A DNA stretch of 64,000 nucleotides, taken from positions 3,715,918 to 3,779,917 of the forward strand of contig NW_006921536.1 in assembly GCF_000340215.1 (NCBI RefSeq), given 5' to 3'. The notes under the pieces were generated by a model that saw only the letters and a program-made list of their open reading frames with translations, was not told the DNA's origin and ran no database searches. Positions within the stretch are counted from its first letter, which is position 1. The number at the start of each line of letters is the position of its first letter. The translations under genes were made by a program, and so were the position numbers. This document shows, piece after piece, positions 3,341-31,491 of this stretch. The stretch comes from Pseudocercospora fijiensis CIRAD86. Its lineage: Eukaryota > Ascomycota > Dothideomycetes > Mycosphaerellales > Mycosphaerellaceae.

Positions 3341-3348
3341 GCTACGTA
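3341..3348. repeat. hAT-1 target-site duplication, left (GCTACGTA)
   Basis: This 8-bp sequence recurs at 13287-13294, immediately outside the opposite terminal inverted repeat. An exact 8-bp duplication is diagnostic of hAT superfamily integration and agrees with the transposase inside the element. Confidence 0.93.
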
Positions 3349-3368
3349 TAGACCCCGCAGTGGTTCGG
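3349..3368 (+). repeat. hAT-1 left terminal inverted repeat (20 bp)
   Basis: TAGACCCCGCAGTGGTTCGG; its exact reverse complement occupies 13267-13286. Identity ends after base 20. The inner neighbour is a hairpin-like GGTTCGG/CCGAACC pair. Confidence 0.93.
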
Positions 3369-3484
3369 TTTCCGAACCACCAAACGTATATGGTTTGGTT
3401 TCTTAGCGGCGAACTAGCTCCCTAGTTCCGGTTTGGTTTTTTCGAACTATATAGATTCCTAGTTTGAACTAGAGACTGTATTAG

Positions 3485-3780
3485 TTTTACTACAAGGACA
3501 CTCTTATTCGACTGCCGGCCACGATTGCCGGCCATAATAGTAACTCTGTTACATTTACTACGCTCTTTTGCCGTTGCTAGGGCGTAGTTGCCGTTGCTAG
3601 GGCGTAGTTTTGCTATAAGGACACTCTTATTCGACTGCCGGCCACGATTGCCGGCTATAATAGTTACTAGGTTGTATTTACTACGCTTTATTACCGTTGC
3701 TAGGGCGTAGTTGCCGTTGCTAGGGCGTAGTTGCCGTTGCTAGGGCGTAGTTGCTATTGCCGGGGCGTAGTTGCCGTAGT
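3485..3780 (+). repeat. hAT-1 left subterminal repeats (20-bp units in a duplicated ~120-bp block)
   Basis: A 20-bp unit, TTGCCGTTGCTAGGGCGTAG, occurs as two copies at 3568-3607 and about four to five degenerating copies from 3691. The segment upstream of each array (AAGGACACTCTTATTCGACT, then paired GCCGGC motifs) is itself duplicated. Subterminal arrays often hold transposase binding sites in hAT elements. That role here is inferred from position only. hAT-2 has the same arrays with different unit numbers. Confidence 0.8.
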
Positions 3781-3949
3781 TGCGAAAGCTTACCTATATA
3801 ACGTTACGTAGGCGGCAACAATTAGGGCTTCGCGATATTCTTACACTTTCAACTTCTTCCTCTATACCTATACCGATAATAACTACTATACGCTGCGCCC
3901 CCGCCCCTTTCCCTTATAATAGTAAGAGAGAAGCGCGCCGCGCGCTAAA

Positions 3950-5290
3950 TAGAAGATGGAACTAAAGACCGCGAGTTTGTTTTGCCTAAGCGTCTAACTA
4001 AAAAGCGCAAGACTAAAGAGGAGTACTCTACGAAGAAGAATTCCGTACGAGACCGCGAGAGAAAGGATAAGATAGATAAGGATAAAAGAGCTAAGGATAA
4101 GAGAAGAAAGGCGCGGAATAAGGCATTCTATCGATAGCTAGCGCCTATAGAAAAAAGTAAAGGTTGGAATAAGAAGACAACCTAAGAGAAGGCTAAGAGG
4201 AGGAAAGAATTGCGGCTAGTTTTCGAGCGTAAAGTTCTAGTAGCGTAAGTCAATCTAGCTAGCGGCCGTAGCTAGCAGCTATAGCCGGCAGCCGTAGCCG
4301 GCAGCTGTAGCCGGTATATTTTTCTTTAATACGTTAACTAATAGTATTCAGACCTATAGTCGCTACCTCTATCGATACGACCGATAGTAACGGAGATATT
4401 TAGATAGCCGAGAACAATAATGCTAGAGTTTAGGATGCCGCGATAGAGCTTAATACTACGAATGAAGGAACTGAAAAAAGCGAGGAGATACTATACGTCG
4501 ATCTAGTAACAGGTGCAGTCTTAGGGCCTAACGCTATAGACGATAAGCGCTAGGAGTGGATCGAGCACAGTCAAAGAGACGAGATACTAGTAAAGGGCTA
4601 AGGCATAAGTCCTATCAATCTAGAAAATCATAGTTAAAGCTACTACGAAAAGCTAGCAAGGATTAGAATCGAGACTAGTCGTCTTTATATCCTCAATATA
4701 GAGTAGAAGTTTCTTTATCAGTATTAGAGCGAAGCCTTTACGTCTATAAAGGCAAAGTAGCTTACGATTAATGCGATCGGGGCTAGGTATCTAGGGACGG
4801 CAGAAGTGTTACTACAGGAGGAAGGGGTACAGGTAATTATTCTATACTCGGCATATATAGCCGACGTTCGTAGCCGGCAGATACTAACAGTTAAACAGAA
4901 AGCGTTTCTCGAAGGCAGAGTGCCACTACTATATGAAATCTTTACTAAGGCAGAGAGGGCTTGTATCCGGAATCTAAGCTGCTAGTAGGATAGGTTAGCG
5001 TTGGAATTCTCTGAATCTCTATATAAGCCTCCGAAGGATTACCTATTTCAGCGATACGGCTTTATCTCGACTACTCCGCAGGTACCCGAAGAAGCTCGAG
5101 CGCTCTTTAAGGTCTTTACTAAGAAGCGGAAGGAGTTCGAGGATCAGGATTGGTTAATAGAGCTGTTAGTTAGTCTTAGGTTTCGTAGTTAGACTCGGCC
5201 TAAGCATTTGCTTATCGAGTATCTTATACCGAAAGAGGATAGATTGAGACTAAAAACGAGCTTAGATTCGTTAGGTATAGTAGCTCGGTT
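3950..5290 (+). pseudogene. hAT cargo gene A: basic, unrecognised protein, at least two introns (degraded)
   Basis: I do not recognise this gene. The first exon (to about 4244) is extremely Lys/Arg-rich (blocks such as KRLTKKRKTKEE and RDRERKDKIDKDKRAKDKRR), suggesting nucleic-acid binding or nuclear localisation. A likely intron runs 4245-4344 (GTAAGT, branch-like CTAAT, AG) and holds GCCGGC repeats. A second runs about 4833-4898 (branch TACTAAC). The third exon reads cleanly (LALEFSESLYKPPKDYL, then YGFISTTPQVPEEARAL) to at least 5190. Breaks are TAG at Gln/Trp positions. The gene is conserved in hAT-2 at about 29500-30850 (minus). It could be an accessory transposition protein or captured cargo. 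Confidence 0.6.
4260..4315 (+). repeat. GCCGGC-bearing short tandem repeat inside an intron
   Basis: Three to four copies of a roughly 12-bp unit containing TAGCCGGCAG lie between the 5' splice site (4245) and the branch/3' splice region of the gene A intron. Comparable clusters occur throughout the element. Confidence 0.75.
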
Positions 5291-5324
5291 CCGTTAGTAG
5301 GAGAGAGCCGCCGTATAGAAGGCA

Positions 5325-5455
5325 AAATTTAGGTAGTTAGGGTAGCTAGGAAAGAAATTCTAGTAGTTGGGCTAGCTAGGGTAGCTAGGAAAAAAAATCT
5401 AGTAGTTAGGTAGCTAGGAAACAAAAAAAAAAGGTAGCTAGCTATTTACTACCTA
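5325..5455 (+). repeat. GTAGCTAGG minisatellite between cargo gene A and transposase
   Basis: Imperfect repeats of a unit containing GGTAGCTAGGAAA and AGTAGTTAGG, ending in a purine-rich A tract. The counterpart in hAT-2 is at about 29340-29465. No gene is visible across it. Confidence 0.7.
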
Positions 5456-5562
5456 GCTGTTCCTAACGATACGATGCTATAAAAGAAAGGGTGTTTCTCT
5501 ATAGCTACTAGTATATATCTACTACTCCTAAGTCCTTACCTTACCGTACGAAACCTCAAAAT

Positions 5563-8500
5563 ATGCCGACCGATATTGTCTATATACTAGGCGCTACACT
5601 AGGAAGGGTAACAACGAGACGACAGTCGAAACAGTCTAGTATACGAGCGAGATTGCGACAACGTCGAGAGGAGGTCGTATACTCACCTTCGAGCCTATCG
5701 AGTCCTAGACGACGATTAGGGCTAGATTCATCCTCTCCGAATCCTAGTAGTAGGAATTCATTACAGGGTACTACTACCTAGTCCTCACTTTCACGGAGTC
5801 TAAGTAGAAGGTTGTTCGGAGACATAAGAACATCGAGTATTAACCCGGAAATCTTCGAAAAGGCTAGCTAGGCGTATCTTTAGAAACCCGAGTATATAGA
5901 GCAGTTCAATTAATAGGTCTATAAGATATAGTTCCCTTTATACTTACGTTCGAAGGAGTATAAACTCCGGAAGTACTCGATGCGATAGGGGAGTAAGGAG
6001 CGAACGGACACATTCTAGAAGTTCTTTATAGAGGGGGCATTATACCGTTATACGACTTCTCGACTTAAAGGTTAACTAGTAATTGTCTATAACTTCTACG
6101 GTTCAATCTTAAAACACCCGAAACTAGGGGATAGGAACTTATCGCCTACGAACTATCTCTATTCTAAACGGTGTCGGGAATCTTAAGGAGAGAGGAGAGT
6201 TAATATAGATACAGCGTTCTAGAAAGAGGTATATCTTCTAAAATGCCGGCTACAGCTACCGGCTACAGCTGCCGGCTACAGATTCCGGCTACCTAAATCA
6301 ACCGTAGAGATCTAGCTAATTATTATAGGCTGCGCTTAAGGAAGCTCTAGGATTAAAGGCTACCGATTTCTCCCCCGAAGACTTTAAGCAACTAGCAAAC
6401 GAAATGCTAGCTATAAACGGTCTTCCGGAAGACTTCTACGAAAGGGAGTCTATATAGAAGACATACCTATATCTTACAAACTACCCTCCCCTATTTCTCG
6501 GCGCGATAACCTAGCGTGTTATATTCGAAAAGAACAAAGAGGCTACGTTAGACGACATTCGGGAGATCCTCCGTAATACTCGCCGAGTAGCTATTGCTGT
6601 CGATAGCTAGTCAAGCCGGACTATAAGAGCCTCCTTCCTCTCGATTATACTATACTTTATCAATTCGGATTAGAAACTCTAGGAACTTATAATCGGATTC
6701 CCTAAAATTCTAGGTTCCTATACTAGTAAGGACATAGCGAAGCTTGTCTATACGGCAATAGACAGGGTTAGCGTAATAACGAAACTGATCTCGATTACTG
6801 CGGACAACGCTAGTAATAATCGAACATTGTATAAGGCGTTATATATACAATTCACTCGCATATGTCTTTAAAATCACTAATTATATCGATAGGGTCGAGT
6901 ATATAGAGGAGATTACAAGGTCTACAATCTAGCTTAATCTTCCGAATGTTAAGCTCGCTACGATTCCGGATACGTACGACAATACGTACGATAATAACGA
7001 TAAAGAGGAGCCTATTAATAGCCCTAGCCCTATTGAATCGGAGCCGACGTCGTTGCTAGTTGCATCCCTATAGAAGTTTCCCTACCTCGCTTATATAGTT
7101 CAAATCGCGATCCGAGCCCTCTTTAAGACGCTTAAAATTGCACTATTAAACGACGACTAATAGAAGATCCTAGATAAGGATAAAGCAAAGTCGAAAGTCG
7201 AGAAACTTATTGCAGCAATAAGACGGGATAAGGCAGAGAGCCTCGCTCTCGTTTTGTATAAGGTATAACTTTTGTCCGTAGCCGGCACCTATAGCCGGCA
7301 ACCTAGTATAGTTCTAACTCTTTTTCTCTAGCTTCGTCGTCTAGCAATATATACGAACTCGAGCTTACAGAGATATAACCGATTCGAGGCTATTTAAAAG
7401 AACCTAATCGAGCGCCCTAAAACCGATACCTAGAATATCGTATAGAATAAGCGATAGTAAAAGCGGCCTCCTTAGCGCCTACTCCGTTTTACCTAAGACG
7501 TTAAGACCCGGTTCGATTCGACTTTCTATATAGTTACGAGGGGATGTACTTTACGTACCGCTCTCGAGATCTATTAGAGTTCCGAGGGTATTGAGTAGCT
7601 CGGCCTTACCGCCGCCGAATAGCGCTAAGCAGAGTATCTCGTCGATATTAGTAAGCATTACGCGAAGGTTACTACTACGATTGGAAGAACCCGAGGACCG
7701 ACGATCTACCTTATCTTTGCGTACTATAACTAGCTCTTTAACGAGCTCGAGGAAACCGCAGCTAAGCTAGCTAAGAAGAGCGTTCCCTAGAAAGTAGCTA
7801 TAACGAAAGCTATAGACACCTCCTATACTAAGTTGCATAAATACTATAGTGCTACCTTTAACTCGTTTAGGGATATCTATAGCGTTGCGTACTTGCTCAA
7901 CCCGGTAGAAAAGGATATATACTAGCAGAGGCCGGAATAGAAGGCGGACGAGGTATAGCCGAAGCATTACTAGACTATTCTAGAAAAGATGTTCTACGAG
8001 CGTCGGAAAGAAACTAGTCTAAATGCAGCTCCTACAAAGAAAAAGAAGGTTTAGAAGGCTCCGATATTATACCTATTTCGTAGGTAGGAAGTAGAGGCAG
8101 AAGAGGAAGCAACTACTAAAGTGAATAAGGAAGAGTTCGATCTCTATCGGCGCGCGAGTAAGTACAAACCCGTAGGCTTAGAAAGAGGGCTAATAATCTC
8201 TAGATCTTACCGGTCTTCTAGACGAATTCGGAGACGATATTCTCGCTATATAGCAGCGGTTAGAGCCTAAGTTTCTAACGATAGCGTCGGTCGCTCGGGA
8301 CGTCCTCGCTATCCCGAGCGCAGGCATAGGCTATAAGAGGTCTTTTAGTATCGCTCGTTACTAGGGCCGCTTTAATCGAATATACTCGCCTACTACCTTC
8401 GAATCTATTATAGTATTCCGATACCATCTCCTCTACTAGAATCGCTAAGGCAGGTTACTAAAGATTATACTAAAGGAGTTAATCGAGGAATTAGAAAACC

Positions 8501-8670
8501 TTAAGATCGAAGAAACCTAGGAGCGCGAAGAGAATACGAAATTTAGTCTAAGCGAAACCCTAATTAGCGATAACGAAGAGGAGGAGGGCGGAGGTAGAAG
8601 GCGATACCGGGTCGAGAAGCGGAAACGTATATAGGCTTAGAGCAGCTTTAAGGAGACGAAGCGTTTACGT
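5563..8670 (+). pseudogene. hAT superfamily transposase, intron-containing (degraded)
   Basis: The DDE-type transposase of the element. Exon 1 starts at ATG 5563 with an Arg/Ser-rich N-terminus; no intact BED zinc finger was found. Introns are inferred at 6229-6328 and 7263-7331 (GTATAA, branch CTAAC, CTCTAG); both contain GCCGGC repeats. Hallmarks follow in order. AIAVDS-stop-SSR is the first catalytic Asp, with Trp mutated to stop. SITADNASNNRTL is the DNASNN block. DVKTRFDSTFYIVTRG corresponds to KTRWNST. Then come TKLHKYYSATFNSFRDIYSV, and near 8230-8450 the hATC dimerisation block with ASVARDVLAIPS, RSFS and a final R..YSPTTFES. The stops are nearly all TAG at Trp/Gln. Full length would be roughly 900-950 residues, within the hAT range. 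Confidence 0.93.
6243..6291 (+). repeat. GCCGGC-bearing repeats in transposase intron 1
   Basis: Four tandem copies of a 12-bp unit of the form GCCGGCTACAGC lie inside the inferred intron 6229-6328. hAT-2 holds extra copies at the same place (about 28465-28550), so the array changes length between copies. Confidence 0.75.
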
Positions 8671-8847
8671 ATAAGGTAATATAGCCGGCGTATATAGCCG
8701 GTATATATCCGAAATGTGTTTCGAATTCCTAGGACCTAAACAGACTAGTTGCTATAGCAACCGACCCCGCTTACCTACGGACTATTTCTAATTCTCTATT
8801 CGCTCTTCCTCTCCTTCTTCCCTTTCCCTATATTCTTAAAGACAAAT

Positions 8848-9640
8848 ATGCCTTAAGGATTCGGCTCTTCGGGCCTTCCTAAGCCGGCTACCTCCCCTTC
8901 CTTAAGCTACTATCCTTTATTCGAATCTAACGATAACCTAATAAGGCGGTTTAATAGAAGACCATTTATTCTAGAAGGCAAGAAGCATTAATGTCTCCCT
9001 ACGATTATATACTTATTAATTTTCTAGGTCCTACCGATATGCCCTCGTCGCCTAAACGCGTAGATAAATATCTTTAGAGGCTAAAGGGCAAGGGTAAAGC
9101 AAGCTAAGTATAGGGAGACCGTAGCGAGAACGAGATATCGGAAGAGCAAGGCTCTCCGTAGTATATACGAAGGAAGGGGGTTCCTCGGAAAACAGTACCG
9201 AAAAACAAGAAAGCTATAGGTAGATAGGAGAAGGCTAAAAAGAGTAGGCGGACGAAGACTGTCGCGAAGAAAAGTTATCTTTCTATTAAAAGAAAGGGAA
9301 TAAGGCAGGACTCGACGATAAAGAAGCGGCGCTTTAAACTAGGTACTATTACCCTTCGCTAGATCCGGCTTTTCTAAAACAAAAGAGGGACCGAGCTTTT
9401 AATCCCTAAGACTCCCTTCTAGCGACTCGTCCGAGAAATTACATTAGATTTTCGGTCTAGTATGCGATTTACGGCTAAGGCGATTAGTGCTCTTTAGGAA
9501 GCTACGGAAGCATTTCTCGTAACCGAGCTTAAGCTTTTAAACCTCCTTGCTATCTATACGAAGCGGGTTACTCTTTAAAATAAAGATATACAGCTTCTAG
9601 CTAAAATTCGGCGTCGGTTTACAGCGGATTAGTTGGAAAT
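8848..9640 (+). pseudogene. Histone H3-like gene A carried by hAT-1 (degraded)
   Basis: From ATG 8848 a Pro/Ser-rich leader is followed, after a probable small intron near 8993-9030, by a long Lys/Arg-rich tail (KTVPKNKKAIGR, KKSRRTKTVAKKSY). A complete H3 histone fold follows from about 9337. It reads LGTITLR-x-IRLF, then TELLIPKTPF-x-RLVREI, DFRSSMRFTAKAISAL, EATEAFLV, LLAIYTKRVTL and KDIQLLAKIR. Each block aligns without gaps to canonical H3 (GTVALREIRRYQKS, TELLIRKLPFQRLVREI, and so on), with TAG/TAA only at Gln positions. Loop 1 has the H3 length rather than the longer CENP-A form. The N-terminal extension is much longer than canonical H3. The frame continues past the fold toward 9690. 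Conserved in hAT-2 at 25045-25824 (minus). Confidence 0.9.
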
Positions 9641-9714
9641 TGTATTTAGTCGTTAGATTAACCTAGGAGGAGGCCTATTTTCGTATCCTTTTGCCGGCTA
9701 CAGGTGCCGGCTAT

Positions 9715-10150
9715 ATTTCTAATTTTATCTCCGCGCCGTCCCTAAATCTAAGGTACGAAGTAGAAACCTAGCGCTCTATATTCACCCGGCTCTTACAGAG
9801 ACGAGCTATATTCAGATTAGTTTCTTCGTATATCGCGACCTAGCGGGTAGTAAGCGAAAGGGCGATAGAACGTTTATAATACGTCTCTATTTAGACCCAA
9901 AATACAAAGGTCCTAAGGAGCCCTAGCATCCTAACTATAAGGAGATTCTTTAGCATTAGCACTTTGATCCTCTGTACTACGAGGTAGATAGTAAGCCTAC
10001 GAGAGAGAAACTTCAACGAGAAATTCTCTATAATACGTAGCGCTATTATATAGCTATAGATACGTACTAAGTCCGGCAACTCGAAGAAGAATTGAGACAG
10101 CGTATTAGCGACCGAGGAGGAGATCGATAGTATACTAGTAGAGTCGAGGT
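9715..10150 (+). pseudogene. Unrecognised reading frame downstream of H3-like gene A (possibly its C-terminal exon)
   Basis: After a GCCGGC-marked intron-like stretch (about 9640-9740) a frame resumes. It gives recognisable but unassigned protein text such as NLALYIHPALTETSYI, FFVYRDLAGSKRKGDRTFII, RLYLDPKYKGPKEP and YEVDSKPTREKLQREIL, broken only by TAG/TAA at likely Trp/Gln. I cannot place it in a family. It could be a separate gene, or a C-terminal domain fused to the H3-like fold, since the fold's frame stays open into the intron. hAT-2 has it at about 24560-24980 (minus). Its 3' part overlaps the start of the 361-bp duplication. Confidence 0.5.
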
Positions 10151-10740
10151 CTTATAAGCGAAGCACAAGATAATATAGGCTCTTAGTCGTATAGAGTAAC
10201 GTACTATATAAATAACTAGGCGTACTACTCTTATTCACTTACGACCTATATCCTAGGATGCTCTTATCGTACCTTTTATACTCTTTTCTAATACCTCACC
10301 TATAATCGCTCCGCGACAACCGAGTGAATATAAGCTATAGGATTTCCGCTCGGTACCTTAGCCTTCGAGATACGGCGGAGTTAATTCTCTATAATACGTA
10401 GCGCTATTGTATAGCTACAGATACGTACTAAGTCCGGCAACTCGAAGAAGATTTAAGACAGCGACCGAGTAGGAGAATAATAGTATATTAGTAGAGTCGA
10501 GGTCTTACAAGCGAAGCACGAGATAATATAGGCTCTTAGTCGTATAGAGTAACGTACTATATAAATAACTAGGCGTGCTACTCTTATTCACTTACGACCT
10601 ATATCCTAGGATACTCTTCTCGTACTTTTTATACTCTTTTCTAATACCTTACCTGTAAGCGCTCCGCGACAACCGAGTGAATATAAGCTGTAGGGTTTCC
10701 GCTCGGTACCTTAGCCTCCGAGATAGGGCGGAGTTGAATT
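10023..10740 (+). repeat. 361-bp tandem duplication unique to hAT-1
   Basis: 10023-10383 is repeated at 10384-about 10740 with scattered transitions and small deletions. It starts at ATTCTCTATAATACGTAGCG and ends near GGCGGAGTT. hAT-2 has a single copy at about 24295-24650, so the duplication arose in this copy or its lineage. The unit covers the tail of the unknown frame plus non-coding sequence. Confidence 0.88.
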
Positions 10741-11290
10741 TAGAGCGATAGCCGGCACTCGTAGCCGGCACTCGTAGCCGGCATATAGAGACGGTAGTAG
10801 GCCTTTTCCTGCTAAATGACTAGCTTGTTTAGTATAGCCTACCTGATATTTCTTATATTTACTAGCAATAGGCCTAGGTTACTTATAAGATTACTATAGC
10901 TAGTAAAGGCATTACTAAAGAATATCTATACTATAGTAGGATACTATTATCACGCCGGCTATTCATTAAAAGGAGGCTTTCGCCTATTACTATGCCGGCC
11001 ACATATGCCGGCTATATTTCAAAGTCTGCCGTACCTGCCTTTTTTAGCCGTGCCTGCCTTTTTTAGCCGTGCCTGCCTTCTTTCCTTGCTCTAACGTTAC
11101 TATAATATAGGCTTGCGCGAAGCTTACTCTATTACCTAGCGACACCGCGACACTACCGCTATATTCAACCTTCGCATCGATACCTACACCTCTACGCTCT
11201 ATATCTACTACCTCCGTAACACCCTCGCTCCGCGCGCGCCTTCGTACACCTTCGTAACGCACTTTTTTCCTCAATTCGACGACTTTTACA
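10741..11290 (+). other. Spacer upstream of H3-like gene B
   Basis: No convincing gene. It contains three tandem GCCGGC units at 10748-10785, two further GCCGGC clusters (about 10955-11013) and a short repeat TTTTAGCCGTGCCTGCC at about 11040-11085. The segment next to gene B presumably held its promoter. An open frame on the minus strand (11044-11274) has an Arg-rich composition but looks fortuitous. Confidence 0.5.
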
Positions 11291-12131
11291 ATAGCGAGTC
11301 TACTTAACTAAGTTACGACGCCTCGCAAGAAGGGACCTACTGCTTCTGCGGGTCGTAACAAGATCGGAAATAGTAGAACGAGCACAGTATATTAACGCAA
11401 GATAGCTGCTGCTACTGCCGCTAGCTCCGGTGCTAGAAAGGGCGTCGCGAGCAAGGCTCCGCGTAAGACAACGGCGGGTAAGGCTCCGCGTAAGACAACG
11501 GCGGGCAAGGCTCTACGCAAGACGACAACTAGCGCTTCTACTGCTAATAGCAATCGTACGAAGCGTCGATAGCGCCTAGGAAGTAAGTCCTATTTATAGC
11601 CGGCAGCGTAGCCGGCAGCGTAGCCGGTAGCGTAGCCGGCATTCTTACTATCTTTTTACTAATCCTTCTTTAGCCGTAGCCCTCCGTAAGATTCGGCAGT
11701 ATTAGAAGAGTTCTTAGCTCCTAATCCGTAAAACTCCTTTCTAACGACTTATTCGCGAAATTGCCTAGGATTATAGAACGGACCTTCGCTTCTAAGCCTC
11801 CGCGATAGGCGCCCTTTAAGAGGCTGTAGAAGCCTACCTAGTTCGTATCTTCGAATGTATATTTCTCTTCTACCTCTTTTCGGACTATACTAATACTATT
11901 TTAGCGGTCAACCTTATAGCTATCTACGCGAAGCGTATAACGATTATAGACAAGGATTTCAAAGCACTCGATCAGATTCTGAAAGGCTAGAATGTCTACA
12001 TTCGAGACGGTACTAGGTAGGATAGATATTCTAGTAGAAAGGATGTTCGTAGTATTATCTACAAGCTTTTCTATATGCGAAATGAGCCGCTATTATACGG
12101 CGCTGTATACCGCGCTCTAAATACTCTCTAA
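11291..12131 (+). pseudogene. Histone H3-like gene B carried by hAT-1, three exons (degraded)
   Basis: A second, more canonical H3. The likely start codon at 11291 now reads ATA (ATG to ATA fits RIP). Exon 1 encodes an H3-type tail in which the motif GKAPRKTTA is repeated three times, followed by RTKRR. Intron 1 is 11583-11673 (GTAAGT, ACTAAT branch, TTTAG) and holds four GCCGGC units. Exon 2 gives AVALRKIRQY, LLIRKTPF-stop-RLIREIA, DYRTDLRF-stop-ASAIGAL and EAVEAYLVRIFE, matching H3 block for block. Intron 2 is 11857-11904 (GTATAT, TACTAATA, TTTTAG). Exon 3 gives VNLIAIYAKRITI and KDFKAL. The frame stops at 11990 (TAG) or, if that was Trp, at 12131, giving a C-terminal extension of about 47 residues unusual for H3. 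hAT-2 copy: about 22926-23738. Confidence 0.92.
11597..11641 (+). repeat. GCCGGC-bearing repeats in intron 1 of H3-like gene B
   Basis: Four 12-bp units of the form AGCCGGCAGCGT lie between the GTAAGT donor and the ACTAAT branch point. Their position inside a well-defined intron is the clearest case of the pattern. Confidence 0.8.
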
Positions 12132-12314
12132 GCATATATATATAGTATAGTATGCTTTATTAGCCGTACGGAATAGAAGTCTCCCAAAATCCCGTTAGTA
12201 CTAAGGAGTAAAAAGGCCGGCCACGCTGCCGGCCACGCTACCGGCTACGCTACTAGCTACGCTGCTAGGTTTTTTAAAGAACTAAAAGAAGATAGACATT
12301 CCGGTTGATTTGTA

Positions 12315-12854
12315 TTAGTTTAGATTTTTATAAAAAGAAAATAGGAAAAAATAAGGAAGGTTGAAGAGCCTAATAGTTATAGTTATAGGCACTATCCCTG
12401 TTTTCTAGAGCATATTATATACCTGCCTTCGCAACTCTACCTAATACTCCCTCTAAATATCCTTATACTCTACCTACTGAAAATTCAACTAAGTACCTAG
12501 ACCTATAGCTGCCTCTATATCTTTTACTATCTTCTATAGGTTGAAGGCCTCTTCTATAGCAGCCTCTACCTCCTTATACAATACGAAGTCACTACCTGCC
12601 CCACCCTTTATATCTCCTAAATAACTAAGAGTTCCAAGGAACGAACTAGCATTCGGCCTTAGTATAGCGAGTAACTAGTAGAACGTTCTATAGAGCTGCC
12701 TTATAGCTCTTTTATATACTATACCGATACCGAGGGAGGAGCCATCCTAGTACTTAATATTGTCGAATAGTTCGGTAGGAAAGTGTATAAACTTCTTAAG
12801 GAGGAGGACTTCTAGGGAAATCGATAAGTTCTACCTAGATCTAGATAAAGACAT
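12315..12854 (-). pseudogene. hAT cargo gene C: 179-codon unknown protein (degraded)
   Basis: Minus-strand frame from ATG at 12854 to TAA at 12315, exactly 540 bp, converging on the H3 genes. hAT-2 has the identical length at 22201-22740 with no indels. That argues for a real coding region, since non-coding parts of the two copies differ by many indels. The translation begins MSLSRSR and contains KKFIHFPTELFDNIKY, a helical segment FNL-x-KIVKDIEAAVGL and a C-terminal FSLFSFYKNLN. Interior stops are TAG at likely Gln/Trp. I do not recognise the family, and no membrane segment or signal peptide is evident. A regulator or second subunit of transposition is possible but unproven. Confidence 0.62.
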
Positions 12855-13266
12855 TCTGCTAAGCAGTTAGGGAATTGAACCGTAAACGAAAGGATGAAAT
12901 TCATACCTAAGGAGTACAGTTTCCGAACTAAACTATAATGCCTTATATATGTGTATATATGCTTTTAATTGGTTAGTGCCCTTAGCTAATTGTCTATAGA
13001 TTTGAGGTCATATAAGTACCTTTATACAACTACGTAGCCTAAGTAGGATTCGAAAATTCTATAAGTACTAAGGACTAAAAATGCCGGCTACGCTGCCGGC
13101 CACACTACTGAGTCTTACAAAGGGCTTGCTTGAAGCTACGTATACATTCGTATACTTCTTAAAAACCGATAAATTATATAGTTCGAACTAGCTACTTATA
13201 TAGTTGCTTAGCAAACCAACCCAAACCAAACTAGAGTTTCGGCTTAGCAAACCAAACCAAACCAAC
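12855..13266. other. hAT-1 right subterminal region
   Basis: Holds the presumed promoter of cargo gene C, a GCCGGC pair at about 13082-13105, and, next to the right inverted repeat, repeated CCAAACC/GGTTTGG motifs (about 13205-13266). The left subterminal region uses a different 20-bp array, so the two ends are asymmetric beyond the 20-bp TIR. Confidence 0.55.
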
Positions 13267-13286
13267 CCGAACCACTGCGGGGTCTA
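13267..13286 (-). repeat. hAT-1 right terminal inverted repeat (20 bp)
   Basis: Exact reverse complement of 3349-3368, followed by the GCTACGTA duplication at 13287-13294. Confidence 0.93.
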
Positions 13287-13294
13287 GCTACGTA

Positions 13295-21768: not shown

Positions 21769-22200
21769 TAGACCCCGCAGTAGTTCGGGTTGGTTTGGTT
21801 TGGTTTGCTAAGCCGAAACTCTAGTTTGGTTTGGGTTGGTTTACTAAGCAACTATATAAGTAGCTGGTTCGAACCATATAATTTATCGGTTTTTAAGAAG
21901 TATACGAATGTATACGTAGCTTTAAGCAAGCCCTTTGTAAGACTTAGCAGTGTAGCCGGCAGCGTAGCCGGCATTTTTAGTCCTTAGTGCTTATAGAATT
22001 TTCGAATCCTACTTAGGCTATATAGTTGTATAAAGGTACTTATATAACCTCAAATCTATAGACAATTAGCTAAGGGCACTAACCAATCAAAAGTATATAC
22101 ATATACACACAAGGCATTATAGTTTAGTTCGGAAACTGCACTCCTTAGGTATGAATTTTATCCTTTCGTTTACGGTTCAATTCCCTAACTGCTTAGCAGA

Positions 22201-22740
22201 ATGTCTTTATCTAGATCTAGGTAGAACTTATCGATTTCCCTAGAAGTCCTCCTCCTTAAGAAGTTTATACACTTTCCTACCGAACTATTCGATAATATTA
22301 AGTACTAGGATAGCTCCTCCCTCGGTATCGGTATAGTATATAAAAGAGCTATAAGGCAGCTCTATAGAACGTTCTACTAGTTACTCGCTATACTAAGGCC
22401 GAATGCTAGTTCGTTCCTTAGAACTCTTAGTTATTTAGGAGATATAAAGGGTAGGGTAGGTAGTAACTTCGTATTATATAAGGAGGTAGAGGCTACTATA
22501 GAAGAGGCCTTCAACCTATAGAAGATAGTGAAAGATATAGAGGCAGCTGTAGGTCTAGGTACCTAGTTGAATTTTTAGTAGGTAGAGTATAAGGATATTT
22601 AGAGGGAGTATTAGGTAGAGTTGCGAAGGTAGGTGTATAATATACTCTAGAAAACAGGGATAGTGCCTATAACTATAACTATTAGGCTCTTCAACCTTCC
22701 TTATTTTTCCCTATTTTCTTTTTATAAAAATCTAAACTAA
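22201..22740 (+). pseudogene. hAT cargo gene C, hAT-2 copy (degraded)
   Basis: Exactly 540 bp from ATG 22201 to TAA 22740, colinear without indels with 12315-12854 of hAT-1. TAG stops occupy likely Gln/Trp positions. The presumed promoter is the GCCGGC- and TTTGG-rich subterminal region to its left. Function unknown; see the hAT-1 entry for composition. Confidence 0.62.
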
Positions 22741-22925
22741 TACAAATCAACCGGAATGTCTATCTTCTTTTAGTTCTTTAAAAAACCTAGCAGCGTAGCT
22801 AGTAGCGTAGCCGGTAGCGTAGCCGGCAGCGTAGCCGGCCTTTTTACTCCTTAGTACTAACGGGATTTTAGGAGACTTCTATTCCGTATAGCTAATAAAG
22901 TATACTATACTATATATATATACTT

Positions 22926-23738
22926 AGAGAGTATTTAGAGCGCGGTATATAGCGCCGTATAATAGCGGCTCATTTCGTATATAGAAAAGCTTATAGATAA
23001 TACTACGAACATCCTTTCTACTAGAACATCTATCCTACCTAGCACCGTCTCGAATGTAGATATTCTAGCCTTTTAGAATCTAATCGAGTGCTTTGAAATC
23101 CTTGTCTATAATCGTTATACGCTTCGCGTAGATAGCTATAAGGTTAACCGCTAAAATAGTATTAGTATAGTCCGAAAAGAGGTAGAAGAGAAACATATAT
23201 TCGAAGATACGAACTAGGTAGGCTTCTATAGCCTCTTAAAGGGCGCCTATCGCGGAGGCTTAGAAGCGAAGGTCCGTTCTATAATCCTAGGCAATTTCGC
23301 GAATAAGTCGTTAGAAAGGAGCTTTACGGATTAGGAGCTAAGAACTCTTCTAATACTGCCGAATCTTACGGAGGGCTACGGCTAAAGAAGGATTAGTAAA
23401 AAGACAGTAAGAATGCCGGCTACGCTGCCGGCTACGCTACCGGCTACGCTGCCGGCTATAAATAGGACTTACTTCCTAGGCGCTATCGACGCTTCGTACG
23501 ATTGCTACTAGCAGTAGAAGCGCTAGTTGTCGTCTTACGTAGAGCCTTGCCCGCCGTTATCTTACGCGGAGCCTTACTCGCGACGCCCTTTCTAGCACCG
23601 GAGCTAGCGGTAGTAGCAGTAGCCCTCTTACGTTGATATACTATACTTATTCTACTATTTCCGGTCTTATTGCGACCCGTAGAAGCACTAGATCCCTTCT
23701 TGCGAGGCGTCGTAACTTAGTTAAGTAGACTCGCTATT
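22926..23738 (-). pseudogene. Histone H3-like gene B, hAT-2 copy (degraded)
   Basis: Minus-strand counterpart of 11291-12131 with the same two introns and the same ATA at the presumed start, so the start loss may predate the split or be a parallel RIP change. The tail here has two rather than three copies of the GKAPRKTTA-type unit, one reading GKALRKTTT. The histone fold is intact in outline with stops at Gln codons. The flanking GCCGGC clusters (about 22800-22840 and 23413-23460) match those of hAT-1. Confidence 0.9.
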
Positions 23739-24559
23739 ATAAAAGTCGTCGAATTAAGGAAAAAAGTGCGTTACGAAGGTATACGAAGATATACGAAGGC
23801 GCGCGCGGAGCGAGGGTATTACGGAGGTAGTAGATATAGAGCGTAGAGGTATAGGTATCGATACGAAGGTTGAATATAGCGGTAGTATCGCGGTATCGCT
23901 AGGTAATAGAGTAAGCTTCGCGTAAGCCTATATTATAGTAACGTTAGAGTAAGGAAAGAAGGCAGGCACGGCTAAAAAAGGCAGGCACGGCTAAAAAAGG
24001 TAGGTACGGGAGACTTTGAAATATAGCCGGCATATATAGCCGGTATAGTAATAGGCGAAAGCCTCCTTTTAATAAATAGCCGGCGTAATAATAGTATCTT
24101 ACTATAGTATAGATATTCTTTAGTAATGCCTTTACTAGCTATAGTAATCTTATAAGTAACCTAGGCCTATTGCTAGTAAATATAAGAAATATTAGGTAGG
24201 CTATACTAAACAAGCTAGTTATTTAGTAGGAAAAGGCCTACTACCGTCTCTATATACCGGCTACGAGTGCCGGCTATCGCTCTAAATTCAACTCCGCCCT
24301 ATCTCGGAGGCTAAGGTACCGAGCGGAAACCCTATAGCTTATATTCACTCGGTTATCGCGGAGCGCTTATAGGTAAGGTATTAGAAAAGAGTATAAAAAG
24401 TACGAGAAGAGTATCCTAGGATATAGGTCGTAAGTGAATAAGAGTAGTACGCCTAGTTATTTATATAGTACGTTACTCTATACGACTAAGAGCCTATATT
24501 ATCTTATACTTCGCTTATAAGACCTCGACTCTACTAGTATACTATCGATCTTTTTCTTA

Positions 24560-24980
24560 GTCGCTAATACGCTGTCTTAATTCTTCTTCGAGTTACCGGA
24601 CTTAGTACGCATCTATAGCTATATAATAGCGCTACGTATTATAGAGAATTTCTCGTTAAAGTTTCTCTCTCGTAGGCTTGCTATCTACCTCGTAGTATAG
24701 AGGATTAAAGTGCTAATGCTAAAGAATCTCCTTATAGTTAGGATGCTAGGGCTCCTTAGGACCTTTATATTTTGGGTCTAAATAGAGACGTATTATAAAC
24801 GTTCTATCGCCCTTTCGCTTACTACCCGCTAGGTCGCGATATACGAAGAAACTAATCTAAATATAGCTCGTCTCTATAATAGCCGGGTAAATATAGAGCG
24901 CTAGGTTTCTACTTCGTACCTTAGATTTAGGGACGGCGCGGAGATAAAATTAGAAATATAGCCGGCACCTATAGCCGGTA
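24560..24980 (-). pseudogene. Unrecognised frame downstream of H3-like gene A, hAT-2 copy
   Basis: Counterpart of 9715-10150. The same protein text is readable, and an open stretch survives in the antisense direction, which I regard as fortuitous. Only one copy of the following 361-bp spacer unit is present here. Confidence 0.5.
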
Positions 24981-25044
24981 AAAGGATACGAAAATGGGCC
25001 TCCTCCTAGGTTAATCTAACGACTAAATACAATTTCCAACTAAT

Positions 25045-25824
25045 CCGCTATAAACCGACGCCGAATTTTAGCTAGAAGCTATATATCTTTATTTTAAAGA
25101 GTAACCCGCTTCGTATAGATAGTAAGGAGGTTTAAAAGCTTAAGCTCGGTTACGAGAAATACCTCCGTAGCTTCCTAAAGAGTACTAATCGCCTTAGCCG
25201 TAAATCGTATACTAGACCGAAAATCTAATATAATTTCTCGGACGAGTCGCTAGAAGGGACTTTTAGGGATTAAAAGCTCGGTCCCTCTTTTGTTTTAGAA
25301 AAGCCGGATCTAGCGAAGGGCAATAGTACCTAGTTTAAAGCGCCGCTTCTTTATCGTCGAGTCCTGCCTTGTTCCCTTTCTTTTAATAGAAAGATAACTT
25401 TTCTTCGCGATAGTCTTCGTCCGCCTACTCTTTTTAGCCTTCTCCTATCTACCTATAGCCTTCTTGTTTTTCGGTACTGTTTTCCGAGGAACCCCCTTCC
25501 TTCGTATATACTACGGAGAGCCTTACTCTTCCGATATCTCGTTCTCGCTACGGTCTCCCTATACTTAGCTTGCTTTACCTTTACCCTTTAGCCTCTAAAG
25601 ATATTTATCTACGCGTTTAGGCGACGAGGGTATATCGGTAGGACCTAGAAAATTAATAAGCATATAATCGTAATAAAATATTAATGCTTCTTGCCTTCTA
25701 GAACAAATAGTCTTCTATTAAACCGCCTTATTAGGTTATCGTTAGATTCGAATAAAGGATAGTAGCTTAAGGAAGGGGAGGTAGCCGGCTTAGGAAGGCC
25801 CGAAGAGCCGAATCCTTAAGGCAT
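25045..25824 (-). pseudogene. Histone H3-like gene A, hAT-2 copy (degraded)
   Basis: Minus-strand counterpart of 8848-9640, with ATG at 25824, the basic leader and the H3 fold (blocks ending KDIQLLAKIR). Differences from hAT-1 are mostly transitions. Confidence 0.88.
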
Positions 25825-25999
25825 ATTTATCTTTAAGAATATAGGGAAAGGGAAGAAGGAGAGGAAGAGCGAATAGAGAATTAGAAATAGTCCGTAGGTA
25901 AGCGGGGTCGGTTGCTATAGCAACTAGTCTGTTTAGGTCCTAGGAATTCGAAACACATTTCGGATATATACCGGCTATATACGCCGGCTATATTACCTT

Positions 26000-28900
26000 A
26001 TACGTAAACGCTTCGTCTCCTTAAAGCTACTCTAAGCCTATATACGTTTCCGCTTCTCGACCCGGTATCGCCTTCTACCTCCGCCCTCCTCCTCTTCGTT
26101 ATCGCTAATTAGGGTTTCGCTTAGACTAAATTTCGTATTCTCTTCGCGCTCCTAAGTTTCTTCGATCTTAAGGTTTTCTAATTCCTCGATTAACTCCTTT
26201 AGTATAATCTTTAGTAACCTACCTTAGCGATTCTAGTAGAGGAGATAGTATCGGAATACTATAATAGATTCGAAGGTAGTAGGCGAGTATATTCGATTAA
26301 AGCGGCCCTAGTAACGAGCGATACTAAAAGACCTCTTATAGCCTATACCTACGCTCGGGATAGCGAGGACGTCCCGAGCGACCGACGCTATCGTTAGAAA
26401 CTTAGGCTCTAACCGCTACTATATAGCGAGAATATCGTCTCCGAATTCGTCTAGAAGACCGGTAAAATCTAGAGATTATTAGCCTTCTTTCCGAACCTAC
26501 GGGTTTATACTTACTCGCGCGCCGATAGAGATCGAACTCTTCTTTATTTACTTTAGTAGTTGCTTCCTCTTCTACCTCTACTTCCTACCTACGAAACAGG
26601 TATAATATCGGAGCCTTCTAAACCTTCTTTTTCTTTATAGGAGCTGTATTTAGACTAGTTTCTTTCCGACGCTCGTAGAACATCTTTTCTAGAATAGTCT
26701 AGTAATGCTTCGGCTATACCTCGTCCGCCTTCTATTCCGGCCTCTACTAGTATATATCCTTTTCTACCGGGTTAAGCAAGTACGCAACGCTATAGATATC
26801 CCCGAACGAGTTAAAGGTAGCACTATAATATTTATACAACTTAGTATAGGAGGTGTCTATAGCTTTCGTTNNNNNNNNNNNNNNNNNNNNNNNNNNNNNN
26901 NNNNNNNNNNNNNNNNNNNNNNNNNNNNNNNNNNNNNNNNNNNNNNNNNNNNNNNNNNNNNNNNNNNNNNAACGCTCTTCTTAGCTAGCTTAGCTACGGT
27001 TTCCTCGAGCTCGTTAAAGAGCTAGTTATAGTACGTAAAGATAAGGTAGATCGTCGGTCCTCGGGTTCTTCTAATCGTAGTAGTAACCTTCGCGTAATAC
27101 TTACTAATATCGACGAGATACTCTGCTTAGCGCTATTCGGCGGCGGTAAGGCCGAGCTACTTAATACCCTCGGAACTCTAATAGATCTCGAGAGCGGTAC
27201 GTAAAGTATATCCCCTCGTAACTATATAGAAAGTCGAATCGAACCGGGTCTTAACGTCTTAGGTAAAACGGAGTAGGCGCTAAGGAGGCCGCTTTTGCTA
27301 TCGCTTATTCTATACGATATTCTAGGCATCGGTTTTAGGGCGCTCGATTAGGTTCTTTTAAATAGCCTCGAATCGGTTATATCTCTATAAGCTCGAGTTC
27401 GTATATATTGCTAGACGACGAAGCTAGAGAAAAAGAGTTAGAACTATACTAGGTTACCGGCTATAGGTGCCGGCTACGGATAAAAGTTATACCTTATACA
27501 AAACGAGAGCGAGGCTCTCTACCTTATCCCGTCTTATTACTATAATAAGTTTCTCGACTTTCGACTTTGCTTTATCCTTATCTAGGATCTTCTATTAGTC
27601 GTCGTTTAATAGTGCAATTTTAAGCGTCTTAAAGAGGGCTCGGATCGCGATTTAAACTATATAAGCGAGGTAGGGAAACTTCTATAGGGATGTAACTAGC
27701 AACGACGTCGGCTCCGATTCAATAGGGCTAGGGCTATTAATAGGCTCCTCTTTATCGTTATTATCGTACGTATTATCGTACGTATCCGGAATCGTAGCGA
27801 GTTTAATATTCGGAAGATTAAGCTAGATTATAGACCTTGTAATCTCCTCTACGTACTCGACCCTATCGATACAATTAGTGATTTTAAAGATATATACGAG
27901 TGAATTGTATATATAACGCCTTATACAATGTTCGATTATTACTAGCGTTATCCGTAGTAATCGAGATTAGTTTCGTTGTTACGCTAACCCTATCTATTGC
28001 CGTATAGACAAGCTTCGCTATATCCTTACTAGTATAGGAACCTAGAATTTTAGGGAATCCGATTATAAGTTCCTAGAGTTTCTAATCCGAATTGATAAAG
28101 TATAGCATAATCGAGAGGAAGGAGGCTCTTATAGTCCGGCTTAACTAGCTATCGATAGCAATAGCTACTCGGCGAGTATTACGGAGGATCTCCCGAATAT
28201 CGTCTAACGCAGCCTCTTTGTTCTTTTCGAATATAATACGCTAGGTTATCGCGCCGAGAAATAGGGGAGGGTAGTTTATAAGATATAGGTATATCTTCTA
28301 TATAGACTCCCTTTCGTAGAAGTCTTCCGGAAGACCGTTTATAGCTAGCATTTCGTTTGCTAGTTACTTAAAGTCTTCGGGGGAGAAATCGGTAGCCTTT
28401 AATCCTAGAGCTTCCTTAAGCGTAGCCTATAATAATTAGCTAGACCTCTACGGTTGATTTAAGTAGCCGGAATCTGTAGCCGGAATCTGTAGCCGGAATC
28501 TATAGCCGGTAGCTGTAGCCGGCAGCTATAGCCGGCAGCTATAGCCGGCATTTTAGAAGACGTACCTCTTTCTAGAACGCTATATCTATATTAACTCTCC
28601 TCTCTCTTTAAGATTCCCGATACCGTTTAGAATAGAGATAGTTCGTAAGCGATAAGTTCCTATCCCCTAGTTTCGGGTATTTTAAGATTGAACCGTAGAA
28701 GTTGTAGACAATTACTAGTTAACCTTTAAGTCGAGAAGTTGTATAACGGTACAATACCCCCTCTATAAAGAACTTCTAGAATATATCCGTTCGCTCCTTA
28801 CTCCCCTATCGCATCGAGTACTTCCGGAGTTTACACTCCTTCGAACGTAAGTATAAAGGGAACTATATCTTATAGACCTATTAATTAAACTGCTCTATAT

Positions 28901-29231
28901 ACTCGGGTTTCTAAAGATACGCCTAGCTAGCCTTTTCGAAGATTTCCGGGTTAATACTCGATGTTCTTATATCTCCGAATAACCTTCTGCTTAGACTCCG
29001 TAAAGGTAAGGACTAGGTAGTAGTATCCTATAATAAATTCCTACTACTAGGATTCGGAGAGGATGAATCTAGCCCTAATCGTCGTCTAGGACTCGATAGG
29101 CTCGAAGGTAAGTATACGACCTCCTCTCGACGTTATCGTAATCTCGCTCGTATACTAGACTGTTTCGACTATCGTCTCGTTATTACCCTTCCTAGTATAG
29201 CGCCTAGTATATATACAATATCGGTCGGCAT
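26000..29231 (-). pseudogene. hAT transposase, hAT-2 copy (degraded, contains assembly gap)
   Basis: Counterpart of 5563-8670 with ATG at 29231. All hAT landmarks described for hAT-1 are present on the minus strand, including the DNASNN block (about 27940), KTRF-x-ST (about 27240) and the hATC block (about 26300-26430). The GCCGGC array in the first intron is longer here (about seven units, 28465-28550). The 100-N gap falls within the coding exon upstream of the hATC region. Confidence 0.9.
26871..26970. other. Assembly gap of 100 N (true size probably ~17 bp)
   Basis: The bases on each side match hAT-1 at 7784 and 7802, leaving 17 bp (7785-7801) between them. The 100 N is thus a placeholder length, and the 106-codon open frame spanning it is an artefact. 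Confidence 0.88.
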
Positions 29232-29499
29232 ATTTTAAGGTTTCGTACGGTAAGGTAAGGACTTAGGAGTAGTAGATATATACTAGTAGCTATAGAGAAA
29301 TACCCTTTCTTTTATAGCATCGTATCGTTAGGAATAGCTAGGTAGTAAATAGCTAGCTACCTTTTTTTTTATTTCCTAGCTACCTAACTACTAGATTTTT
29401 TTTCCTAGCTACCCTAGCTAGCCTAACTACTAGAATTTCTTTCCTAGCTACCCTAACTACCTGAATTTTGCCTTCTATACGGCGGCTCTCTCCTACTAA

Positions 29500-30850
29500 C
29501 GGAACCGAGCTACTATACCTAACGAATCTAAGCTCGTTTTTAGTCTCAATCTATCCTCTTTCGGTATAAGATACTCGATAAGCAAATACTTAGGCCGAGT
29601 CTAACTACGAAACCTAAGACTAACTAATAGCTCTATTAACTAATCCTAATCCTCGAACTCCTTCCGCTTCTTAGTAAAGACCTTAAAGAGCGCTCGAGCT
29701 TCTTCGGGTACCTACGGAGTAGTCGAGATAAAGCCGTATCGCTAAAATAGGTAATCCTTCGGAGGCTTATATAGAGATTTAGAGAATTCTAACGCTAACC
29801 TATCCTACTAGTAGCTTAGATTCCGGATATAAGCCCTCTCTACCTTAGTAAAGATTTTATATAGCAGTAGCACTCTGCCTTCGAGAAACGCTTTCTATTT
29901 AACTGTTAGTATCTGCCGGCTACGAACGCCGGCTATATATGCCGAGTATAGAATAATTACCTATACCCCTTCCTCCTATAGTAACACTTCTGCCGTTCCT
30001 AGATACCTAGCCCCGATCGCATTAATCGTAAGCTACTTTGCCTTTATAGACGCAAAGGCTTCGCTCTAATACTAATAAAGAAACTTCTACTCTATATCGA
30101 GGATATAAAGACGACTAGTCTCGATTCTAATCCTTACTAGCTTTTCGTAGTAGCTTTAACTATAATTTTCTAGATTGATAGGACTTATACCTTAGCCCTT
30201 TACTAGTATCTCGTTTCTTTAACTATACTCGATCTACTCCTAGCGCTTATCGTCTATAGCGTTAGGCCCTAAGACTACACCTGTTACTAGATCGACGTAT
30301 AGTATCTCCTCGCTTTTTTTAGTTCCTTTATTCGTAGTATTAAGCTCTATCGCAGTATCCTAAACTCTAGCATTGTTGTTCTCGGCTATCTAAACATCTC
30401 CGTTACTATCGGTTATATCGATAGAGGTAGCGGCTATAGGTCTAAATGCTATTAGTTAACGTGTTAAAGAAAAATATACCGGCTACAGCTGCCGGCTACG
30501 GCTGCCGGCTATAGCTGCTAGCTACGGCCGCTAGCTAGATTAACTTACGCTACTAGAACTTTACGCTCGAAAACTGGCCGCAATTCTTTCCTCCTCTTAG
30601 CCTTCTCTTAGGTTGTCTTCTTATTCTAACCTTCACTTTTTTCTATAGGCGCTAGCTATCGATAGAATACCTTATTCCGCGCCTTTCTTCTCTTATCCTT
30701 AGCTCTTTTATCCTTATCTATCTTATCCTTTCTCTCGCGGTCTCGTACGGAATTCTTCTTTATAGAGTACTCCTCTTTAGTCTTACGCTTTTTAGTTAGA
30801 CGCTTAGGTAAAACAAACTCGCGGTCTTTAGTTCTATCTTCTATTTAACG
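29500..30850 (-). pseudogene. hAT cargo gene A, hAT-2 copy (degraded)
   Basis: Counterpart of 3950-5290. The basic N-terminal exon lies at about 30570-30850 and GCCGGC repeats occupy the intron at about 30478-30535. The minisatellite separating it from the transposase is at about 29340-29465. Function unknown. Confidence 0.6.
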
Positions 30851-31014
30851 CGCGGCGCGCTTCTCTCTTACTATTATAAGGGAAAGGGGCGGGGGCGCAG
30901 CGTATAGTAGTTATTATCGGTATAGATATAGAGGAAGAAGTTGAAAGTATAAGAATGTCGCGAAGCCCTAATTGTTGCCGCCTACGTAACGTTATATAGG
31001 TAAGCTTTCGCAAC

Positions 31015-31350
31015 TACGGCAACTACGCCCCGGTAATAGTAACTACGCCCTAGCAACGGCAACTACGCCCTAGCAACGGCAACCACGCCCTAGCAACGGT
31101 AATAAAGCGTAGTAAATACAACCTAGTAACTATTATAGCCGGCAATCGTAGCCGGCAGTCGAATAAGAGTGTCCTTATAGCAAAACTACGCCCTAGCAAC
31201 GGCAACTACGCCCTAGCAACGGCAACTACGCCCTAGCAACGGCAACTACGCCCTAGCAACGGCAAAAGAGCGTAGTAAATGTAACAGAGTTACTATTATA
31301 GCCGGCAATCGTAGCCGGCAGTCGAATAAGAGTGTCCTTATAGCAAAACT
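31015..31350 (-). repeat. hAT-2 subterminal repeats
   Basis: Complement of the hAT-1 left array. The 20-bp unit is present about four times at 31021-31100 and four times at 31185-31264 (two in the matching hAT-1 array), separated by the duplicated block with paired GCCGGC motifs. The copy-number difference shows array instability. Confidence 0.8.
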
Positions 31351-31491
31351 AATACAGTCTCTAGTTCAAACTAGGAATCTATATAGTTCGAAAAAACCAA
31401 ACCGGAACTAGGGAGCTAGTTCGCCGCTAAGAAACCAAACTATATACGTTTAGTAGTTCGGAAACCGAACCACTGCGGGGTCTAGTAAACT

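What the first reader, a model, noticed from the sequence alone, without database searches (positions are those of the whole stretch)
3349..13286. A hAT transposon that carries two different histone H3-like genes
Seen: 20-bp TIRs, an 8-bp target duplication, a full set of hAT transposase motifs, and between the same TIRs two separate H3 folds (8848-9640 and 11291-12131) that align block for block with H3 and have spliceosomal introns. The same unit is present inverted at 21769-31484 in another host element. Known: hAT elements rarely carry host-type genes. From unverified memory, DNA-transposon transduplication, I believe of histone H3, was reported in Pyrenophora. Inference: the H3 genes are long-term cargo, possibly helping the element alter local nucleosomes, escape silencing or control replication-coupled transposition.
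Basis: partly seen in the sequence, partly recalled or inferred. Interest (0 to 1): 0.95.

Follow-up and report, generated by a model that had tools for sequence, protein, structure and literature searches.

The report
Dead jumping gene carrying two histones
A fungal 'jumping gene' that carries two histone H3-like genes, present in hundreds of mutated copies; the element was already published, but its histone genes look like old, spliced parts of the element rather than recent copies of a host messenger RNA.

Summary
Window 3349-13286 is a complete hAT transposon: 20-bp TIRs, perfect 8-bp TSD, a decayed transposase and two H3-like genes. It is not new. The copies seen are fossils: 148 of 150 scored histone matches carry in-frame stops; the other two are host H3 and CenH3. 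Added here: (1) the published '16-aa insertion' in the second H3 fits a 48-nt spliceosomal intron, and that gene has another intron 3 nt from a host H3 intron, so 'a transcript was captured, no introns' does not fit it. (2) The two H3s are not recent duplicates (49/83 identical). (3) Three diverged subfamilies carry both genes in the same order with the same introns. (4) Between subfamilies the first gene's histone fold changed at 3.6% of sites (purine/pyrimidine) against 10.0% in non-coding DNA and 5.1% in the transposase, so it looks selected; the second evolved fast. What the histones did is unknown; a chromatin role is a guess.

The parts
3341..3348 (.). left target-site duplication GCTACGTA
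3349..3368 (+). left 20-bp TIR
3369..3880 (.). 5' subterminal region with 123-bp and 20-bp tandem repeats and paired GCCGGC motifs
4245..4344 (+). putative ORF1 intron holding GCCGGC units
   Evidence: inferred from frame and splice-like ends
4356..5321 (+). ORF1 main piece, unknown function, decayed; no Pfam hit over cut-off and no homologue found
5563..8655 (+). hAT-type transposase gene, decayed, in pieces 5563-6240, 6329-6856, 6897-7262, 7377-8165, 8218-8655
   Evidence: Pfam Dimer_Tnp_hAT below cut-off on the last piece; codon-position bias of substitutions
8848..8977 (+). H3-A exon 1 (tail)
8978..9027 (+). H3-A intron in the tail, phase 1; in 26 copies donor GCAAGA 17, GTAAGA 8, TTAAGA 1, acceptor TTCTAG 26 of 26
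9028..9623 (+). H3-A exon 2: long basic tail and histone fold (fold 9342-9623), decayed
   Evidence: Pfam PF00125 1.5e-22; solved H3 chains, best 4.1e-32
10022..10740 (.). tandem duplication of about 353-366 bp; the homologous stretch is shorter by about one unit in W2 and s2a
11315..11582 (+). H3-B exon 1: tail with tandem KAPRK-type units
11447..11513 (+). 27-bp tandem repeat encoding 9-aa tail units; number varies between copies in steps that keep the frame
11583..11673 (+). H3-B intron 1 (GTAAGT donor, ACTAAT, TTTAG), holds GCCGGC units
11674..11856 (+). H3-B exon 2, first part of histone fold, decayed
   Evidence: Pfam PF00125 4.2e-17
11857..11904 (+). H3-B intron 2, 48 nt; fits the published '16-aa insertion'
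11905..12080 (+). H3-B exon 3: end of histone fold (to about 11987) and C-terminal extension
13267..13286 (-). right 20-bp TIR
13287..13294 (.). right target-site duplication GCTACGTA
21769..31484 (-). second, inverted copy of the same element (100 N at 26871-26970)

Best explanation
This is one of hundreds of RIP-killed copies of a hAT transposon family of Pseudocercospora fijiensis that carries two histone H3-like genes (the family of Dhillon et al. 2019). It moved as hATs do, leaving 8-bp target duplications (duplications shown; cut-and-paste from established knowledge of hATs). Before decay it carried ORF1, a transposase, H3-A (long tail, one intron) and H3-B (tail with tandem KAPRK-type units, two introns). 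Both H3 genes were already in the common ancestor of at least three subfamilies, were spliced, and at least H3-A was kept as a working protein while the family spread (inferred from conservation). RIP-type mutation then destroyed the copies. What the histones did is not shown; the guess is that they entered nucleosomes and eased expression or transposition of the element against silencing.
For: Identity: 73.94 Mb, largest contig 11.88 Mb, host H3 on C6, against about 74 Mb, 11.8 Mb and scaffold 6 in the papers; same TIR and TSD lengths, element length and two H3s. RIP: TA/AT 1.79; 148 of 150 scored histone matches have stops. Both H3s in 24 of 24 copies read plus one copy of a third subfamily. 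Introns in those 24: H3-B intron 1 donor GTAAGT 24, TTTAG acceptor 24 (in one, L017, followed by a short duplication that one search had counted as a misfit), length 79-103; intron 2 is 48 nt in 24. H3-B exon 1 keeps its phase in 24 of 24. Constraint, variable purine/pyrimidine sites among three subfamilies: H3-A fold 10/281, transposase 142/2759 (third-position excess p=1.4e-5), non-coding 94/942; H3-A fold v. non-coding p=0.0004.
Against: H3-A shows no significant third-position excess (4/1/5, p=0.22), and its tail and exon 1 are not conserved beyond non-coding DNA. H3-B changes faster than non-coding DNA (42/266, p=0.011) with only a weak third-position excess (p=0.04). Non-coding sites counted are only those that align, a bias. 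Splicing is inferred, with no RNA. Intron 2 donors read ATAT.. in 12 of 24 copies, and ACTAAT is intact in 17 of 24; most copies have a GC donor in the H3-A intron (17 of 26). The species name rests on numbers matching papers, not on a named record. Subfamily 3 rests on one copy read nearly whole and one partial copy; the right end of the former was not found. Of subfamily 2 only the C12 copy matches from end to end; the C17 copy matches from 6381 on.
Confidence: 0.72

Rival explanations
1. Passive transduplication (published view): a host H3 transcript or retrocopy was captured by chance and amplified as a neutral passenger.
For: Published reading of this family. H3-A has no intron in its fold, where host H3 has one. 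H3-B evolves fast.
Against: H3-B has two intron-like inserts with conserved splice signals, one of which fits the '16-aa insertion'; both genes persist in three subfamilies with mostly frame-keeping indels in H3-A and in the H3-B tail; the H3-A fold is constrained. H3-A and H3-B are too unlike to be one captured copy duplicated recently (49/83).
Confidence: 0.22
2. The H3 genes are active today and shape chromatin or transposition in this genome.
For: In Pyrenophora tritici-repentis a hAT-borne H3-like gene is mostly intact and has ESTs (PMC3538342, passages and part of one section).
Against: 148 of 150 scored matches have in-frame stops; the other two are host H3 and CenH3. Only the best 150 of 772 candidates were scored, so an unlisted intact copy is not formally excluded; Dhillon et al. 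report that all but the original were inactivated.
Confidence: 0.02
3. The introns are chance insertions or tandem-repeat growth in dead copies, not spliced introns.
For: Intron 1 consists largely of GCCGGC units that also occur in spacers.
Against: Same places, donor and acceptor in three subfamilies, ACTAAT before the acceptor of intron 1 in nearly all (lost in s2b); few purine/pyrimidine changes in them (3/117); both sit where removal restores H3 continuity.
Confidence: 0.06

Closest known systems
H3-carrying hAT of Pseudocercospora fijiensis (Dhillon et al. 2019, PMC6710886)
   Same: 9.5-9.9 kb, 20-bp TIR, 8-bp TSD, two H3-like copies in full-length elements, RIPped, 784 H3-like copies, original H3 on scaffold 6. 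Taken to be the same element.
   Different: The paper reads both H3s as copies of one captured transcript without introns; in the sections read it describes no subfamilies in P. fijiensis and no selection on the copies. Here the second H3 has intron-like inserts, the two H3s are distinct, and the dimerisation domain, reported as not found, is seen below the Pfam cut-off; DUF659, reported as found, was not.
H3L hAT element of Pyrenophora tritici-repentis (Manning et al. 2013, PMC3538342)
   Different: 5.6 kb, one H3L, most copies intact and with ESTs. Homology with this element could not be tested; Dhillon et al. report no similarity of the element sequences.
Divergent H3 proteins P0002 (metagenome), P0078 (Tricladium), P0228 (Bisporella)
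   Same: P0002 is nearer H3-A of the window (59/98) than host H3 is (51/91) and shares a 2-residue insertion in the first helix.
   Different: Genomic setting unknown; the tree joins long branches with weak support.

Membership tests
hAT DNA transposon | short TIRs | tested here: met
   20-bp TIRs; 362 + 358 genome matches against control 1 + 0
hAT DNA transposon | 8-bp target-site duplication | tested here: met
   own copy 8/8; 10 of 10 further TIR pairs 8/8; W2 imperfect
hAT DNA transposon | hAT transposase with C-terminal dimerisation domain | tested here: inconclusive
   PF05699 E=0.0032, 17.6 bits, below cut-off 21.4; gene decayed
H3-carrying hAT of P. fijiensis (PMC6710886) | 9.5-9.9 kb element with two H3-like genes | tested here: met
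   9938 bp; two PF00125 regions
H3-carrying hAT of P. fijiensis (PMC6710886) | host genome and copy number | tested here: met
   73.94 Mb; 772 first-look candidates for PF00125, which are not yet copies, against 784 published; identity with the published consensus sequence not tested
captured processed H3 transcript | no introns | tested here: not met
   H3-B two intron-like inserts, H3-A one in its tail; splicing itself not shown
canonical histone H3 | H3-type histone fold | tested here: met
   (by sequence)
canonical histone H3 | near-invariant sequence and tail | tested here: not met
   51/91 and 59/85 identity of the fold with host H3; tails differ
CENP-A/CenH3 | closer to host CenH3 than to H3 | tested here: not met
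   48/91 and 49/85 with CenH3, below the values for H3, for H3-A by a small margin

The most novel reading that the evidence does not exclude
Two different H3 variants were standing, selected genes of a hAT lineage: the element supplied its own nucleosome parts. H3-A kept its fold under selection, while H3-B evolved fast with a tail that grows and shrinks by KAPRK-type units, as expected in a contest with host silencing. The H3-carrying hATs of Capnodiales and Pleosporales would then be one old kind of element rather than repeated accidents of capture.
Probability: 0.25. Interest if true: 0.78.

Novelty: already known. Interest (0 to 1): 0.42.

Why it matters
The element itself is in print, so the headline is not new. 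What matters is the correction: if its H3 genes had introns and were selected while the element spread, they were not a passively copied host transcript. This would be a rare case of a transposon with histones of its own and makes the role of such histones testable in fungi where the gene is still intact.

Tried and rejected
Tried without result. Whole-element DNA search of the own genome was not scored (too many letters). ORF1 has no homologue at E<=0.01 among the 7997 candidates scored and no Pfam hit over cut-off. Profile searches with H3-A and its relatives brought mostly ordinary or tandem H3s among the 120 listed, so wider spread of the element could not be shown. Papers: searches are listings. 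Of PMC6710886 I read abstract and Background, Results, the first of two parts of the Discussion and Methods; of PMC3538342 the first of two parts of one section and passages; of PMC13041039 and PMC4981457 passages only. No supplements were read.

Considered and rejected: that residues shared by H3-A and H3-B mean a matched pair (some lie at RIP-type sites and cannot be read); that the element at C14:456472-466282 lacks H3s (its interior reads N, gap or withheld); that introns were gained by spreading of one introner (only the GCCGGC units are shared, the splice ends differ). I first took the two best 373-bp derivatives as untouched by RIP; one search does not bear that out (TA/AT 1.22 and 2.11).

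Dropped rows: 6 of 28 transposon H3-A loci fetched were not extended downstream. Gap columns, and sites where W1 and W2 differ in class, were left out. Copies were picked from high-scoring H3-A matches, so their H3-A content is by construction; only the presence of H3-B is informative. One search stopped with an error before its last tests; those on the transposase were done.
Full report
What is there. The element at 3349-13286 is bounded by 20-bp TIRs and a perfect 8-bp TSD. The genome holds 362 + 358 TIR matches at up to two mismatches, against 1 + 0 for the reversed pattern (100 places listed). Ten TIR pairs chosen from the perfect matches listed there, 9.5-10.0 kb apart, all have perfect 8-bp TSDs, each different. 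Nine of the ten hold an H3 match or 69 (eight hold both H3s, one only H3-B in these capped lists); the tenth reads N inside. On the + strand lie ORF1, a transposase in pieces, H3-A and H3-B.

Which organism and element. The genome has 73.94 Mb and a largest contig of 11.88 Mb, with host H3 on C6. The P. fijiensis papers give about 74 Mb, a largest scaffold of 11.8 Mb (passages) and the original H3 on scaffold 6. Dhillon et al. describe 784 H3-like copies in 471 elements, 133 elements of 9.5-9.9 kb, a 20-bp TIR, an 8-bp TSD, and two H3-like copies per full-length element, the second with a 16-aa insertion. I take it as the same element. The name rests on these numbers, not on a named record; an rRNA check did not complete.

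Decay. The TA/AT ratio is 1.79 in the element and 0.53 at the host H3 locus. Of 150 histone matches scored, 148 carry in-frame stops; the other two are host H3 (L009) and host CenH3 (L034). Only the best 150 of 772 candidates were scored. The best 150 matches to H3-B exon 2 show the same: only host H3 is without stops (150 of 761 candidates).

Two different H3s. The H3-A fold of the window is 51/91 identical to host H3 and 48/91 to CenH3; H3-B is 59/85 and 49/85; H3-A to H3-B is 49/83. So they are not recent duplicates, and neither is nearer to CenH3 than to H3, H3-A by a small margin. H3-A has a long basic tail and two extra residues in the first helix, shared with a metagenomic H3 (P0002, 59/98). 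The tree placing them together is weak (86/67, long branches). H3-B has a tail with 9-aa KAPRK-type units, whose number changes in steps that keep the frame.

Introns. In 24 copies (W1, W2, 19 of subfamily 1, three of subfamily 2), H3-B intron 1 starts GTAAGT in 24 of 24 and has the TTTAG acceptor in 24; one search counted 23, but in the odd one (L017) the acceptor is present and followed by a short duplication. Its length as counted is 79 (5), 91 (15), 102 (2) or 103 (2), L017 being one of the longer ones because of the duplication. ACTAAT lies before the acceptor in all but s2b (one search counts 22 of 24, missing L017 for the same duplication). Intron 2 is 48 nt in 24 of 24; its donor reads GTAT.. 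in 12 and ATAT.. in 12, and ACTAAT is intact in 17. 48 nt is 16 codons, so intron 2 is very probably the published 16-aa insertion (inference). Host H3 has an intron at codon 44, phase 1; H3-B intron 1 lies at codon 45, phase 1, 3 nt away. Host H3 has none at codon 106, where H3-B intron 2 sits. H3-A lacks an intron in its fold but has one in its tail at 8978-9027: in 26 copies 49-51 nt, acceptor TTCTAG in 26, donor GCAAGA in 17, GTAAGA in 8, TTAAGA in 1. Hence a processed-transcript origin does not fit H3-B unless introns were gained later; for H3-A it stays possible.

Subfamilies. A copy on C12 matches the window element at 82% over its first 5.4 kb, and one on C17 at 85% in the transposase part (from 6381 on); both match at about 79-80% around H3-A and 74-76% around H3-B. 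A further copy on C6 matches at 88% over its first 6.4 kb and 76% in H3-B. All carry H3-A and H3-B in the same order with the same introns; H3-B of the C17 copy is split by a nested 373-bp derivative.

Selection. RIP makes transitions useless, so I counted only sites where subfamilies differ as purine against pyrimidine, with no reconstruction (W1, W2, one copy each of subfamilies 2 and 3). Transposase 142/2759 (5.1%), third-position excess p=1.4e-5; ORF1 69/960 (7.2%); H3-A exon 1 15/130 (11.5%), tail 21/281 (7.5%), fold 10/281 (3.6%); H3-B tail 29/203 (14.3%), fold 42/266 (15.8%, third-position excess p=0.04), C-terminal extension 9/76 (11.8%); non-coding 94/942 (10.0%); H3-B introns 3/117 (2.6%). 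H3-A fold against non-coding p=0.0004; H3-B fold is faster than non-coding, p=0.011. Earlier runs with other sets of copies (cut short by an error after most H3 tests) agree in direction: H3-A fold 3.5% between subfamilies 1 and 2, without significant third-position excess. P values are not corrected for the number of tests. So the H3-A fold looks kept, while H3-B looks fast or partly relaxed. The 3' part may also have its own history (recombination), which I did not test.

How it worked. Shown: hAT-type insertion, decay by RIP-type mutation, two H3-like genes shared by subfamilies. Inferred: splicing and selection. Guessed: the histones entered nucleosomes and helped the element against silencing. 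The tails still hold lysine-rich H3-like motifs, so I do not claim that they escape lysine methylation.

Verdict. Observation confirmed; element already known; the published account of its H3 genes needs revision. That the intron reading is not in print rests on searches (open-licence PMC only) and the sections named above.

Noticed in passing
C7:1843928-1844300, C14:62379-62751 (L087, L088): A derivative of about 373 bp with the same TIRs; the two copies read match only the element's ends; at least 40 copies at 78-100% identity. These two (363/373 identical) have perfect 8-bp TSDs and are less depleted of RIP targets than the full element, index 0.78 and 0.65 against 0.42, GC 54-56%. One copy is nested in H3-B of a subfamily 2 element on C17.
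   Followed up: partly
window 3514-13100: GCCGGC occurs 28 times in the element against about 2 expected (most in 100 simulations: 6), often in 12-13-bp tandem units within putative introns, spacers and both ends; the unit number varies between copies and a pair is kept in the 373-bp derivative. Possibly transposase binding sites; unexplained.
   Followed up: partly
window 62501-63020: A GC-rich stretch without RIP signature (TA/AT about 0.5, GC 60-65%) ends at a run of 100 N inside an otherwise RIPped region.
   Followed up: no
P0078 (Tricladium varicosporioides), P0228 (Bisporella): Divergent H3 proteins in two fungi (both Leotiomycetes, recalled); the Tricladium one is listed on three contigs, which may mean several copies.
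   Followed up: no
L001-L008: The own genome also holds hAT transposases over the Pfam cut-off, two of these eight without stops in the dimerisation domain (L003, L004); none of the eight matched this element by blastn at E<=1e-10 over more than 120 bp.
   Followed up: no
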